DNA of 64,000 bases, taken from NCBI RefSeq assembly GCF_017848645.1, contig NZ_JAFEIF010000002.1, positions 1 through 64,000 on the forward strand, read 5' to 3'. This document shows, piece after piece, positions 20,774 through 28,820 of this stretch; within the stretch, counting starts at the first letter, position 1; each line of letters begins with the position of its first letter. Source of the stretch: Limnohabitans sp. (GTDB lineage Bacteria; Pseudomonadota; Gammaproteobacteria; Burkholderiales; Burkholderiaceae_C). The notes under the pieces are model-generated. The model ran no database searches, was not told the origin of the DNA, and saw only the letters and a program-made list of their open reading frames with translations. The position numbers were made by a program, and so were the translations under genes.

Positions 20774-21772
20774 ATGAAATTTACTGCCCCTGCATTTGTT
20801 CGCACCACCTTGGGTGCCATCGCCTTGACCCTGGGTGCCAGCGCCATGGCGCAGTCCGTGGTGCGCTTTCAGGACTATCCTGGTACCGGCAATTTGTTGG
20901 TGCGTGTGGCCCAAGAGCAAGGCTTCTGCCAGCAAGCGGGCATTCGCTGCGAACTGCGCACCATCGCAGGCGGGCCCCTGGGCATGCAGACCATGCTCTC
21001 GGGTGACATCGAAGTGTTTTTTGGCCCGACCGAAGTGGCGGTTGCAGCCGTGGCCCGCAAGGCCCCCATTTCCATCATTGCCGCAGGTTTCGTTGACCCG
21101 GTGTTTTTCATGGCCGCAGGTGCAAAAACCGAATTGCCGACCGAAAAAGAAGGCTACCCCGGTGTGGTCAAGTCCTTCAAAGGTAAAAAAATCGGCGTGA
21201 CCCAACGCGGCTCAGGCGCTGAATTTCAGGTGATCGACATGCTGGCCGATGCGGGCCTGACTGCGAACGACGTGACCTTTGTGGCCGTGGGCGCGCCCGA
21301 CACAGCATTTCCTGCGCTCACGCGCGGCCAGGTCGATCTGATCATGACCTTCCCGCCTGCCGACGGCATGTGCGAAGTGCTCAAGGCCTGCCGTCTGGTG
21401 GTCGACCCCCGCAAAGGTCAAGGCCCCAAGAGCATGCTGGCGACCCGTGGTGGCGCTGGCGCCATGGCGGTGAAGAGTGAATGGGCTGCAGCCAATCCAC
21501 AAACGGTGGCCGCTATCCGCAAGATGCTGGACATGTCGGATGCTTTTGTCGCCAACCCAGCCAACTTCGGCAAGACACTGGAGATCCTGCGCAAGACCTT
21601 TGCACTGCAATTGCCCAACGCAGACCAGATCGCTGAGGTGAGCCTGCGCAACGGCATCGGCAACTTCAAGGCCCGTGGCACCGTGCCCGCCATGCAGGCG
21701 GTGGCCAATGGCATGGCTGAAAACAAGCTGCTGCCAGCCAAAGTGGACATGGCACCCGCGGTCTTGCCTTGA
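20774..21772 (+). CDS. ABC importer periplasmic binding protein, sulfonate/nitrate/taurine (SsuA/TauA) superfamily
   Basis: Periplasmic binding protein of the NMT1/SsuA type, 332 residues. The signal peptide runs to ASAMA-Q at about residue 25; the mature protein begins VVRFQDYPGTGNLLVRVAQEQGF and continues with the usual lobe pattern (GGPLGMQTMLSGDIEVFFG, FKGKKIGVTQRGSG, TRGQVDLIMTFPPADG). It has three cysteines, which is unusual for a periplasmic protein of this family. First gene of an operon that runs through an ATPase, a permease, a TauD-like dioxygenase and microcompartment genes; the ligand is therefore probably the dioxygenase substrate, an organosulfonate or a similar small anion. 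Ligand identity is inference. Confidence 0.85.
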   Translation: MKFTAPAFVRTTLGAIALTLGASAMAQSVVRFQDYPGTGNLLVRVAQEQGFCQQAGIRCELRTIAGGPLGMQTMLSGDIEVFFGPTEVAVAAVARKAPISIIAAGFVDPVFFMAAGAKTELPTEKEGYPGVVKSFKGKKIGVTQRGSGAEFQVIDMLADAGLTANDVTFVAVGAPDTAFPALTRGQVDLIMTFPPADGMCEVLKACRLVVDPRKGQGPKSMLATRGGAGAMAVKSEWAAANPQTVAAIRKMLDMSDAFVANPANFGKTLEILRKTFALQLPNADQIAEVSLRNGIGNFKARGTVPAMQAVANGMAENKLLPAKVDMAPAVLP

Positions 21773-21806
21773 ACTTCGAGCGGCGAGATTTTTTCAGGGA
21801 GCATTC

Positions 21807-22571
21807 ATGATCGACGCACAGCGCATCGACCTGAGCTTTGACGGCACCAATTTGGTGTTGCAGGGGGTAGACCTGCACGTCAAGGCGGGGGAGTTTGTCG
21901 CGCTCGCAGGCCCCAGCGGCTGTGGCAAAACCACCTTGCTCAACCTGTGCGCGGGGCTGGTAGATTTGCCTGCAGGTCAGCATTTGCTGGTGGCGGGTGA
22001 AAAGCCAGCGCTGGGCAGCCACAACGTGGCCTATATGTTGGCCCGCGACAGTTTGTTTCCCTGGCTCAACGCGCTGGACAACGCTGCCTTTGGCCTGAAG
22101 GTTCGGGGTGTGCCGATTGCGGATGCCCGGGAACGGGCCGCTGTGATGCTCAAGCAGGTCGGGCTCGGCGGGTCTGAGTACCGACTGCCCAAGGCCCTGT
22201 CTCACGGCATGCGCCAGCGCGTGGCCCTGGCCCGCACCTTTGCCATGCCATCGCCCCTGCTGCTGATGGACGAGCCCTTTGGGGCACTGGACGCACAAAC
22301 CAAGCTGCAGCTGCAGGACCTGCTGCTGCAGTTGTGCCAAGAAGGCAACCGCACGGTGCTTTTTGTGACGCACGACTTGTCTGAAGCCGTGGCCCTGGCC
22401 GACCGGGTGATGGTGATGTCCTCGCGTCCAGGGAAAATCGTGGCCGATGTGCAGGTGCCTCTGGCGCGTCCGCGCTCTATCCGTGAGCTGCAGACCAGCG
22501 ATGACTTCCACCACACCTACACACAAGTTTGGAAACATCTCGAAGAAGGTTGGGTGCACCATGAGGGCTGA
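21807..22571 (+). CDS. ABC importer ATPase, SsuB/TauB type
   Basis: Cytoplasmic ATPase of 254 residues: Walker A GPSGCGKTT, Q-loop segment MLARDSLFPWLNALDNA, signature LSHGMRQRVALARTFA and Walker B LLLMDEPFGALDAQTK, followed by the H-loop VTHDLSEAVALADRV. This motif set is typical of nitrate/sulfonate/taurine importers; the signature has His in place of the usual second Gly. Start ATGATCGAC follows a GGGAG ribosome site; 34 bases after the binding-protein gene. Its last 11 bases overlap the permease start, so the two are translationally coupled. Confidence 0.92.
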   Translation: MIDAQRIDLSFDGTNLVLQGVDLHVKAGEFVALAGPSGCGKTTLLNLCAGLVDLPAGQHLLVAGEKPALGSHNVAYMLARDSLFPWLNALDNAAFGLKVRGVPIADARERAAVMLKQVGLGGSEYRLPKALSHGMRQRVALARTFAMPSPLLLMDEPFGALDAQTKLQLQDLLLQLCQEGNRTVLFVTHDLSEAVALADRVMVMSSRPGKIVADVQVPLARPRSIRELQTSDDFHHTYTQVWKHLEEGWVHHEG

Positions 22572-23316
22572 AACATTGCGTACCTTGTCACTGCATGCCC
22601 TGTTCCTGTGCGTGGTTCTGGGCTTGTGGGAGTGGGCTGCCCGCATGGGTTGGATTGACCCAAGTTTCATGGGCAGTCCGCTGGGCATCATCCAGTTCAC
22701 GCTGGAGAACCTGACCAACGCCCGCTTGTGGGGCGATTTGGGCTACACCCTGTTGGCCGTGTTCGCGTCTTTTGTCATTGGCTCGGTTGCCGCCATGATC
22801 ACGGGCTTGGCCTTTGTGACCTGGCCCAAGTTCGAGGCTTTTTGCGACCCCTACATCTCTGCCTTCAATGTGCTGCCGCGCATTGCGCTGGTGCCGCTGT
22901 TCATTTTGTGGTTTGGTTTGGGCATCGGCTCCAAGATCGCTCTCGGGGTTTCGCTGACGTTCTTCATTGTGCTGTCCAGCACGGTGGCCGGTATTCGGGG
23001 CGTCAGCCAGGACCATGTGACGCTCACCCGCACCCTGGGTGCCAGCAGTCGGCAGATGTTTTTCTCAGTCACATTGCCGGGCGCTGTGCCTGTGCTGTTC
23101 TCAGGATTGCGCTTGGGCGTGATCTACGCCTTGCTGGGCGTGGTGGGCGCAGAAGTCATTGCTTCCGAGCGTGGCCTTGGGCAGCAACTGGCCTACCTGG
23201 GCTCTACTTTCAACGTCAACGGCGTGTGGTCACTGCTGTTTGATCTGGCGCTCATTGGGGTGCTGATCATGAAGCTGATGAACTGGATCGAACGCCGTTT
23301 GCTGCACTGGCAATAA
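22561..23316 (+). CDS. ABC importer permease, SsuC/TauC type
   Basis: Inner-membrane permease of 251 residues with six predicted helices, the first starting LHALFLCVVLGLWEWAA. The cytoplasmic EAA-type coupling loop is visible as RTLGASSRQMFFSVTLPGA, and the C-terminal block GLRLGVIYALLGVVGAEVIA is typical of the family. The start lies inside the ATPase gene. It closes the transporter part of the operon; the dioxygenase gene begins 35 bases later behind an AAGGAG ribosome site. Confidence 0.92.
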   Translation: MRAETLRTLSLHALFLCVVLGLWEWAARMGWIDPSFMGSPLGIIQFTLENLTNARLWGDLGYTLLAVFASFVIGSVAAMITGLAFVTWPKFEAFCDPYISAFNVLPRIALVPLFILWFGLGIGSKIALGVSLTFFIVLSSTVAGIRGVSQDHVTLTRTLGASSRQMFFSVTLPGAVPVLFSGLRLGVIYALLGVVGAEVIASERGLGQQLAYLGSTFNVNGVWSLLFDLALIGVLIMKLMNWIERRLLHWQ

Positions 23317-27852: not shown

Positions 27853-28125
27853 ATGTCACAAGCTATCGGAATGATCGAAACCAAAGGTTATGTTGCTGCC
27901 TTCGCTGCCGCTGACGCCATGGTCAAAGCCGCCAACGTCAACATCGTTGGCAAAAAAGAAGTCGGTGGGGGCCTGGTCGCCATCATCGTCTCGGGCGACG
28001 TGGGTGCCGTCAAAGCCGCCACCGAAGCCGGTGCAGAAGCCGCAGGCGCGATCGGTGAAGTGGTGTCCTGCCACGTCATCCCACGTCCACACGCTGACGT
28101 GTCCAAAGCCTTCGACGGCAAGTGA
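27853..28125 (+). CDS. Microcompartment major shell protein BMC-H
   Basis: 90-residue single-domain BMC protein that forms the hexameric tiles of the shell facets. The family N-terminus QAIGMIETKGYVAAFAAADAM, the helix DVGAVKAATEAGAEAA and the tail SCHVIPRPHADV are textbook. The central pore loop reads KKEVGGGLVAI, so the pore is lined by the backbone of G38-G39-G40, giving a narrow uncharged opening as in other GGG or GSG hexamers. A strong AAGGAG site ahead of the ATG and a 68-base spacer from the vertex gene suggest separate, higher translation, as expected for the most abundant shell protein. Confidence 0.97.
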   Translation: MSQAIGMIETKGYVAAFAAADAMVKAANVNIVGKKEVGGGLVAIIVSGDVGAVKAATEAGAEAAGAIGEVVSCHVIPRPHADVSKAFDGK

Positions 28126-28154
28126 TCGCAGGCTGTTGCAGATAAGGAGGCCGC

Positions 28155-28820
28155 ATGGCCACAACTAAAAAAACCGCAGCGCCTGCCAAGCCGGCCGCTG
28201 AGCTTCGGGTTTACCTGACGCTCACCGACCTGCAGCCCCAGTTCTCCTCGTGGATGAGTTCGCCCTTGGGCGCACGCGGCTACGTGGCGATGCAAGGCAC
28301 CAATGCGCTGCTGGTCGAGATCGCCCCCGGGCTGTCCATTCAACGTGTGATCGACTTGGCCCTGAAGGCCGAGCCCACACTCGAGCCCGGCATCCTGGCC
28401 GTGGAGCGGCAGTTTGGTGTGCTGGAGTTGCACAGCAACGACAGCGCGGCGCTGCAGCGTGCCGGCCAGGTCATCCTGGACTGGATGGGCGCCAAGGCCC
28501 AAGACCAGCTGCGCCCGCATCTGCTGTACAGCGACATTCTGGAAAACGTGACCGATCAGCACGCCGTGCTGATGAACCGGACACGCCAAGCCAGCATGGT
28601 GCTGCCTGGCCAAAACATGCTGCTCATGGAAGTGGCCCCGGCCCTGTTTGGTGCCCACATGGCCAACGAAGCCGAAAAAGTCGCCCCTGACCTGACCTTG
28701 GTCGAGTGCAGCATGATCGGTGCGAGCGGCCGCATGTACCTCACGGGCAGCATGGCTTCGCTCGAAAAAGCCAAAGCCCATGTGGAGCAATTGCTTTCGG
28801 AAATTCCGGGCAGAGGCTGA
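28155..28820 (+). CDS. Microcompartment shell protein, tandem-domain trimer BMC-T (second copy)
   Basis: 221 residues: two BMC domains preceded by a 16-residue Lys/Ala/Pro-rich extension (TTKKTAAPAKPAAE) absent from the first BMC-T. The first domain contains the gating-type E84-R85 in LAVERQFGVLELHS; the second has MNRTRQASMVLPGQNMLLME and GASGRMYLTGS. The same architecture as the first copy but with many substitutions and a different second pore loop, so the two trimers probably have distinct permeability rather than being redundant. Ribosome site AAGGAGG just before the ATG. Last gene of the operon, ending before a hairpin shared with the convergent gabD-like gene. Confidence 0.93.
   Translation: MATTKKTAAPAKPAAELRVYLTLTDLQPQFSSWMSSPLGARGYVAMQGTNALLVEIAPGLSIQRVIDLALKAEPTLEPGILAVERQFGVLELHSNDSAALQRAGQVILDWMGAKAQDQLRPHLLYSDILENVTDQHAVLMNRTRQASMVLPGQNMLLMEVAPALFGAHMANEAEKVAPDLTLVECSMIGASGRMYLTGSMASLEKAKAHVEQLLSEIPGRG

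What the first reader, a model, noticed from the sequence alone, without database searches (positions are those of the whole stretch)
20774..28820. Candidate new microcompartment type: oxygenase-fed metabolosome with a sulfonate-type importer
One operon encodes an SsuABC/TauABC-like importer, a TauD-family dioxygenase, a CoA-acylating aldehyde dehydrogenase and a minimal shell (BMC-T, BMC-P, BMC-H, BMC-T). Described metabolosomes make their aldehyde with lyases, dehydratases, aldolases or amine enzymes; none of the signature enzymes I know (PduCDE, EutBC, glycyl-radical enzymes, fuculose aldolase, aminopropanol enzymes, RuBisCO) is present. Here the aldehyde would come from O2-dependent C-S (or C-O) cleavage. 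I do not recall this set in published surveys, but cannot check.
Basis: partly seen in the sequence, partly recalled or inferred. Interest (0 to 1): 0.95.

Follow-up and report, generated by a model that had tools for sequence, protein, structure and literature searches.

The report
Oxygenase-fed bacterial microcompartment, RMM-derived
A freshwater Limnohabitans-type bacterium carries a gene set for a protein-shelled compartment in which a taurine-dioxygenase-type enzyme takes the place held by amine-processing enzymes in the nearest known relatives, so that the compartment likely uses oxygen to make and contain a reactive aldehyde.

Summary
The dioxygenase is conserved there: of 34 TauD-selected loci, the 32 whose contigs run on all have AldDH and BMC-T next. 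Searches by shell protein, not TauD, gave 19 genomes with a close shell: 10 have TauD, 9 an aminotransferase, none both. The chassis is not new: order and shell match RMM1 of Rhodococcus, but TauD-type AldDH and shell form their own group across alpha- and betaproteobacteria. TauD bears a helical C-terminal tail, likely for encapsulation. A SnoaL domain sits at two different places of the same middle protein in two TauD-type lineages. Oxygenase BMCs have a precedent, ARO. No description of this type turned up in the listings and passages seen, but the catalogue's type table was out of reach. Substrate: probably a small sulfonate, unproven. A real RMM-derived variant with another signature enzyme.

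The parts
19904..20626 (-). Divergent CRP-family regulator gene (no cysteine in the sequence, by eye, so not FNR-like)
   Evidence: a homologue (32-98% identity) stands divergently upstream in 32 of the 34 loci (not L034; L035 lacks upstream sequence)
20774..21772 (+). Solute-binding protein, NMT1/SsuA-like
   Evidence: NMT1 2.2e-12; TIGR01728 3.1e-18, under its cut-off
21807..22571 (+). ABC ATPase, nearest model taurine type (start placed by me at the MIDAQ methionine)
   Evidence: NF008421 4.5e-59, under its cut-off
22561..23316 (+). ABC permease, SaoP/TauC/SsuC-like (start placed by me)
   Evidence: all under cut-off
23352..24401 (+). TauD-family Fe(II)/2-oxoglutarate dioxygenase with a C-terminal linker plus helical tail (about residues 296-349)
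24409..25914 (+). Aldehyde dehydrogenase of the CoA-acylating AdhE/EutE/SauS group, C-terminal peptide like an encapsulation peptide
25924..26538 (+). BMC-T (CcmP-like), closest solved structure RMM protein MSM0275
26535..27518 (+). Middle protein: N-terminal helix, SnoaL_2 domain, then a region shared with the middle protein of other RMM-like loci and a Cys-rich stretch
27515..27784 (+). BMC-P (EutN/CcmL)
27853..28125 (+). BMC-H
28155..28820 (+). Second BMC-T (CcmP-like)
   Evidence: NF053796 1.2e-49, under its cut-off

Best explanation
The window holds an operon in which a TauD-family dioxygenase gene stands directly before an RMM1-type aldehyde-dehydrogenase-and-shell cassette, and its products likely form a microcompartment in which the dioxygenase is predicted to make the aldehyde that the dehydrogenase would turn into an acyl-CoA. 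Proposed working (inferred): the importer brings in a small organic anion, most likely a sulfonate without taurine's amine. It passes the shell with O2 and 2-oxoglutarate. TauD would hydroxylate the carbon next to the sulfonate, and the product would fall apart into aldehyde plus sulfite, with succinate and CO2. AldDH would convert the aldehyde with CoA and NAD+ to acyl-CoA inside the shell, so that the aldehyde does not leak. The middle protein would organise cargo through its N-terminal helix; where it carries a SnoaL domain, that domain is predicted to act on or hold the TauD product. Shown here by sequence: gene content, order, conservation, groups on trees, tails, SnoaL at two sites. Not shown: substrate, encapsulation, products.
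For: Content and families. RMM1 chassis: best PDB match of BMC-T1 is MSM0275; same order AldDH, BMC-T, hypothetical, BMC-P, BMC-H, BMC-T in R. jostii pRHL2. TauD-selected loci (34): 32 continue past TauD and all 32 have AldDH and BMC-T1 (in L035 the AldDH match is in two pieces); all 27 that run far enough have the whole shell set (L008's last gene is cut by the contig end); importer genes precede TauD in all 32 loci other than L034 (none) and L035 (no upstream sequence). Shell-first, not selected for TauD: of 19 genomes with BMC-T1 at 51% or more, 10 have TauD before AldDH and 9 an aminotransferase, 0 both in the stretches read (contexts 41, 55, 73; tables 43, 57, 58, 76, 86; for G000 the window's own genes). 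Trees: TauD-type is one group, BMC-T1 support 88/86 (below the starred level), AldDH 96/91. Tail: present in 37 of 37 locus-derived TauD ORFs (one genome twice); model with mean pLDDT 93.6 gives core, weak linker about 296-310, helices 313-318, 321-336, 339-348. AldDH ends in a conserved helix-like peptide. H100, D102, H268, R279 and the anion-contact equivalents H71 and R283 are invariant in 82 sequences; F73, T95, W206 (E. coli numbers) are the same in 6 of 6 shell-linked TauDs read and in none of the four paralogues that aligned. SnoaL insertions.
Against: No biochemistry. TauD, SBP, ATPase, permease and AldDH all fall below the cut-offs of the taurine, sulfonate and acylating-dehydrogenase models, and the SBP's best solved relative has no named substrate. 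The importer is a TRAP system in the four alphas. Residues on taurine's amine side in E. coli TauD (recalled) differ, so taurine itself is not favoured. The tail is longer than a usual encapsulation peptide (recalled) and mostly well folded in the model, so it could serve oligomerisation; 7 of 61 TauDs in its clade lack it by eye, and three rows outside (P0098, P0099, P0106) have a shorter similar piece; the genomic context of these database proteins is unknown. SnoaL is absent in three Limnohabitans-like loci, in L034 and in lineage 2, so it is not essential. No phosphotransacylase or alcohol dehydrogenase is in the operon. No sulfite-handling gene family was seen among the shared flank families, and genome-wide sulfite handling was not searched.
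Confidence: 0.55

Rival explanations
1. Same oxygenase-fed RMM-like compartment, but the substrate is not a sulfonate: an alkyl sulfate ester, an aryloxy- or alkoxy-carboxylate or another small acid is oxidised to an aldehyde.
For: TauD-superfamily proteins of solved structure are named for such substrates (phenoxypropionate dioxygenase, AtsK). H70 and R270 equivalents would bind anions in general (recalled). The alphas' TRAP transporter is of the DctP type and lineage 2 has an MFS gene whose best models are lactate/monocarboxylate transporters, under cut-off.
Against: Best model and best structures are taurine dioxygenases; ATPase and permease are nearest to taurine, Sao and aliphatic sulfonate models, though under cut-off.
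Confidence: 0.35
2. The TauD is cytosolic and only co-transcribed; the compartment treats an aldehyde from another source.
For: Encapsulation of TauD is not shown; the tail could be for oligomerisation (model, tails).
Against: TauD directly precedes AldDH in every TauD-type locus whose contig runs on; TauD and aminotransferase exclude each other (10 v 9, 0 both); tail present in 37 of 37 locus ORFs.
Confidence: 0.08
3. Not new as a locus: it is one of the already catalogued types without obvious signature enzyme (MIC2-7, MUF2-3 and others) in Sutter et al. 2021, which used UniProt data to March 2020.
For: That catalogue names such classes and places RMM1/RMM2 BMC-Tdp in its tree; several Limnohabitans genomes probably predate 2020 (recalled).
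Against: Main texts of both catalogues have 0 mentions of TauD, taurine or dioxygenase; the 2014 catalogue describes RMM with amine enzymes.
Confidence: 0.3

Closest known systems
RMM1 metabolosome (Rhodococcus jostii pRHL2; aminoacetone/aminopropanol type)
   Same: Gene order AldDH, BMC-T, middle protein, BMC-P, BMC-H, BMC-T; BMC-T1 60% and BMC-H 75% identical to the R. jostii proteins; incomplete core (RMM)
   Different: Signature enzyme is TauD, not a class III aminotransferase with a phosphotransferase; different importer and regulator; AldDH 39% identical and in another group
ARO microcompartment (Actinobacteria)
   Same: A ring-opening dioxygenase proposed as encapsulated signature enzyme making a semialdehyde (PMC10470539, passages)
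   Different: Extradiol dioxygenase, not Fe/2OG; AldDH without encapsulation peptide and not CoA-dependent; one BMC-P and two BMC-H; divergent shell clades
Isethionate microcompartment of Bilophila wadsworthia (PMC8667426, search listing only)
   Same: Organosulfonate desulfonation in a BMC (listing)
   Different: Anaerobe with a glycyl-radical enzyme instead of an O2-dependent one (listings and recall)
TauD/TauABC of E. coli (taurine as sulfur source)
   Same: Dioxygenase family and fold (6edh, 37% identity); related importer family
   Different: No shell (recalled); no C-terminal tail beyond the core (283-residue chain); Y73, N95, F206 changed to F, T, W here

Membership tests
RMM1 metabolosome | AldDH, two BMC-T(dp), BMC-P and BMC-H in RMM order with a middle protein | tested here: met
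RMM1 metabolosome | Amino-alcohol enzymes (class III aminotransferase, APH-type kinase) in the locus | tested here: not met
   absent in the 9 TauD-type loci and among the window genes scanned; aminotransferase found in all 10 amino-type loci (R. jostii at 26%), kinase in 8 of those 10
ARO microcompartment | PF02900 extradiol dioxygenase, AldDH without EP, BMC-P plus two BMC-H | tested here: not met
Metabolosome (general) | BMC-H and BMC-P with a CoA-acylating AldDH | tested here: met
   (AldDH by family; activity not tested)
Metabolosome with complete core | PTAC and alcohol dehydrogenase in the locus | tested here: not met
   none among the ten operon genes; genome-wide presence not tested
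TauD/TfdA dioxygenase family | HxD...H facial triad and 2OG arginine | tested here: met
Taurine dioxygenase proper | Taurine as substrate; amine-side residues as in E. coli | tested here: inconclusive
   anion contacts kept, amine-side residues changed (which residues touch the amine is recalled); NF007104 255 bits against a cut-off of 313
Sulfonate ABC importer | Transports sulfonates | not testable with these tools
   family resemblance only, under cut-offs

The most novel reading that the evidence does not exclude
An aerobic desulfonating microcompartment: an Fe(II)/2-oxoglutarate dioxygenase is the encapsulated signature enzyme that splits a small organosulfonate into aldehyde and sulfite within an RMM-derived shell, in alpha- and betaproteobacteria; a SnoaL-fold domain was put into the same cargo protein twice, at different sites, to handle the alpha-hydroxysulfonate/aldehyde-bisulfite intermediate.
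Probability: 0.3. Interest if true: 0.87.

Novelty: new variant of a known kind. Interest (0 to 1): 0.74.

Why it matters
Metabolosomes in general are described with lyases, dehydratases, aldolases or amine enzymes as aldehyde source (general knowledge; ARO is an exception). Here one RMM-type shell and AldDH chassis is found with two mutually exclusive signature enzymes, which suggests exchange of the signature enzyme on a fixed chassis and gives a natural pair for engineering. If the substrate is a sulfonate, it would be an aerobic counterpart of the Bilophila sulfonate compartment in freshwater bacteria and a testable route of organosulfur turnover in lakes. The TauD tail offers a testable way to load an oxygenase into a shell.

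Tried and rejected
Rejected: a wholly new shell type. Rejected: the downstream SSADH, formaldehyde-activating enzyme, aldo-keto reductase and MocR genes as part of the system; of the 34 loci only L003 shares them. Rejected: a fixed role for the SsuABC-like importer. Without yield: structure of the SnoaL-fusion protein (mean pLDDT 46, not used); PDB search for the SBP (weak); Xsc in the own genome (7 matches, none over the cut-off, and all 14 control genomes ring below cut-off too). A first alignment of the TauD paralogues picked wrong frames and was redone (two of the six paralogues, L173 and L174, gave no alignment). Helical-moment values were not used, since the strongest window often lay outside the last helix. 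Rows dropped: 39 of the 120 listed TauD hits were left out of alignment A1 (81 used) as fragments, short or near-duplicates; of 903 hits only 120 were listed. The trees used 19 TauD-type and 8 amino-type rows plus two outgroup rows; L166 and L167 were fetched later and are not in them, and the program warned of long branches in the AldDH tree (L066, L033, L034, L135 and the outgroups). In one search, 21 of 27 matching genomes, and, 66 of 69, had under 51% identity and were not examined; that many are carboxysome proteins is my guess. The rule for tails misfiled P0060 (has one) and P0080 (has none); counts here are by eye. LysR and AraC labels are by eye.

Literature limits: ten searches were answered in a library of openly licensed papers only. 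Several showed a part of what they found: 20 of 132 (the most relevant one), 15 of 58, 20 of 110, 12 of 1,077; so an unlisted paper with both microcompartment and TauD is possible. Seen: sections 6, 7 and 8 and passages of PMC8217296; passages of PMC4207490, PMC10470539, PMC8156839 and PMC12263773 (the last has both words but not in one locus); all others as listings. Supplements could not be read.
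Full report
WHAT IS THERE. Pfam misses the second BMC-T, but NCBIfam's CcmP model hits it at 1.2e-49, under its cut-off. In the whole genome PF00936 and BMC-T1 match only here. The nearest named record is Limnohabitans sp. DM1 (TauD 100% identical, L003); the same-genus genome G652 has a contig of the same length as Limnohabitans sp. T6-20, so I place the window in that genus.

CONSERVATION, SELECTED BY TAUD. 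A scan of GTDB species genomes with the TauD gave 34 loci, by title mostly Limnohabitans or other Comamonadaceae/Burkholderiales, with one more distant burkholderial (L033, 68%) and one alphaproteobacterium (L034, Chachezhania, 56%). Two contigs end in TauD (L026, L036); the other 32 have AldDH and BMC-T1 next (AldDH in two pieces in L035), and all 27 that run far enough have the complete shell set, one of them (L008) with its last gene cut by the contig end. The importer genes precede TauD in 32 loci; L034 has none and L035 no upstream sequence. Ten of the 32 (L011, L013, L017, L018, L020, L022, L023, L026, L032, L036) carry a diverged importer (SBP 43-51% identical). A clustering of ORFs of 90 aa or more over 40 stretches (34 loci, L102-L106, the window) showed, apart from shadow ORFs lying over the unit's own genes, no further family in more than 10 stretches among the 70 largest clusters.

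CONSERVATION, NOT SELECTED BY TAUD. To avoid circularity I searched with the shell protein BMC-T1. In 399 Burkholderiaceae genomes, 27 matched; 6 at 51% identity or more (G000, G652, G294, G642, G779, G782), and all 6 have TauD before AldDH. In 385 genomes of the class of L034's genome, 11 matched, all at 55% or more: 4 have TauD (G399, G971, G1143, G1065) and 7 a class III aminotransferase, 6 of these with an APH-type kinase. In 369 genomes of the window's own class, 69 matched; the two new ones of 51% or more have the aminotransferase. Together: TauD 10, aminotransferase 9, both 0, out of 19 genomes, within the stretches read. The other 21 and 66 weaker matches were not examined. Four other genomes of the window's genus have no match, so the unit is variable within the genus.

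RELATION TO RMM1. The best solved relative of BMC-T1 is MSM0275 of the mycobacterial RMM compartment. Plasmid pRHL2 of Rhodococcus jostii RHA1 has AldDH, BMC-T, hypothetical, BMC-P, BMC-H, BMC-T in the same order, with an aminotransferase and a phosphotransferase. RMM has been proposed to turn aminoacetone into propionyl-CoA (PMC8156839, passage). Trees of BMC-T1 and AldDH put the 19 TauD-type rows in one group (88/86 and 96/91) and the 8 amino-type rows in another (87/79 and 94/95); the BMC-T1 values are below the program's starred level. So this is a separate branch of the RMM chassis with its own signature enzyme, in at least three settings: Limnohabitans-like; lineage 2 (G294, G642, G779, G782; TauD 46-48%, with a LysR-like gene and a monocarboxylate-type MFS nearby); and alphaproteobacteria with AraC-like and TRAP genes downstream (L034, L127-L129; DctP 48-100%, DctM 67-100% identical to L127). 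An AraC-like gene at 39-40% identity also lies near the importer in lineage 2.

THE DIOXYGENASE. Facial triad H100, D102, H268 and R279 are invariant in 82 sequences. The closest structures are taurine dioxygenases (6edh, TM-score 0.93 by target, 37% identity). Equivalents of E. coli H70 and R270 are invariant, while Y73 is F in 76 of 82 and N95 is T in 74 of 82; F206 is W in the six shell-linked TauDs read (window, L033, L034, L103, L105, L127). From recall, H70 and R270 hold the sulfonate, and Y73, D94 and N95 lie on the amine side; on that basis an anionic substrate without taurine's amine is favoured and is likely shared by the lineages. The genome has seven TauD-family genes, and none of the four paralogues that aligned has the F/T/W signature.

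THE TAIL. All 37 locus-derived TauD ORFs (one genome counted twice) carry a tail after the core; L033 has a short form, the rest a linker and a conserved end. In the tree of 82 TauD cores (81 of the 120 listed hits plus the window) the tail is concentrated in one 61-row clade; by eye 7 of its rows lack it. Of 21 rows outside, 18 end at or near the core and three (P0098, P0099, P0106) have a short piece like the first half of the tail. The model shows core, weak linker and three helices. AldDH also ends in a conserved helix-like peptide, in line with the catalogue's statement that type I AldDHs carry a C-terminal encapsulation peptide. I read the TauD tail as likely encapsulation; it is untested.

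THE MIDDLE PROTEIN. The gene between BMC-T1 and BMC-P is the counterpart of the R. jostii hypothetical protein: hhalign of the SnoaL-fusion family against nine middle proteins (eight TauD-type and R. jostii) gives 97.9% probability over 132 columns outside the SnoaL domain. In the Limnohabitans-like loci the SnoaL_2 domain lies right after the N-terminal helix, in 25 of the 28 that could be measured (absent in L019, L021, L028). In L127-L129 a SnoaL-like domain lies further in, after the shared region's first half (Pfam 2e-18 and 2.5e-19 for the two scanned, L127 and L128). The position differs, so two insertions are the simplest reading; one insertion and a rearrangement is not excluded. It is absent in lineage 2 and in L034 (152-170 aa; Pfam empty for the two scanned). 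Middle proteins of eight amino-type loci (L130-L133, L135, L136, L167, R. jostii) are 141-150 aa, too short to hold it; L134 and L166 were not resolved. The repeated use of the domain in TauD-type loci suggests that it acts on the product, which is inference.

NOVELTY. Ten answered full-text searches, some showing only part of their hits, and word counts over the main texts of both BMC catalogues gave no TauD-type BMC. ARO is a clear precedent for an oxygenase signature enzyme, though of another family and shell. The catalogue lists types with an AldDH and no obvious signature enzyme; this locus may sit among them unrecognised. I therefore call it a new variant of a known kind.

Noticed in passing
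window 30623-31138: A formaldehyde-activating enzyme (Fae, TIGR03126 6.2e-44, over its cut-off) next to an aldo-keto reductase, with SSADH, MocR-like and GMC oxidoreductase genes nearby; of the 34 TauD loci only L003 shares Fae, so not part of the BMC unit, but odd in this company.
   Followed up: partly
window 27282-27335 (middle protein residues 250-267): A Cys-rich stretch (six cysteines invariant in 42 homologues) between the SnoaL and C-terminal parts; could bind a metal. Also present in the SnoaL-less L028 version.
   Followed up: partly
L012:19345-20312: A second BMC-H plus BMC-T2 pair about 4 kb downstream of the main locus (98% and 97% identical to the window's).
   Followed up: no
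L066:15894-17490: R. jostii pRHL2 has a second copy of BMC-T, middle protein, BMC-P and BMC-H with the same protein accessions as the first.
   Followed up: no
P0121 (450 aa): A homologue of the SnoaL-fusion protein with two SnoaL_2 stretches.
   Followed up: partly
L005: A record titled Akkermansia muciniphila MAG carries the Comamonadaceae-type locus with TauD 95% identical: the contig or the name is probably misassigned.
   Followed up: no
L127:78-4174 (reverse strand): An HpaB-type monooxygenase, cupin, DUF2848 and DUF3500 genes stand divergently upstream of the TauD-type locus in this alphaproteobacterium, with relatives in one or two of the other fetched loci; possible upstream pathway.
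   Followed up: partly
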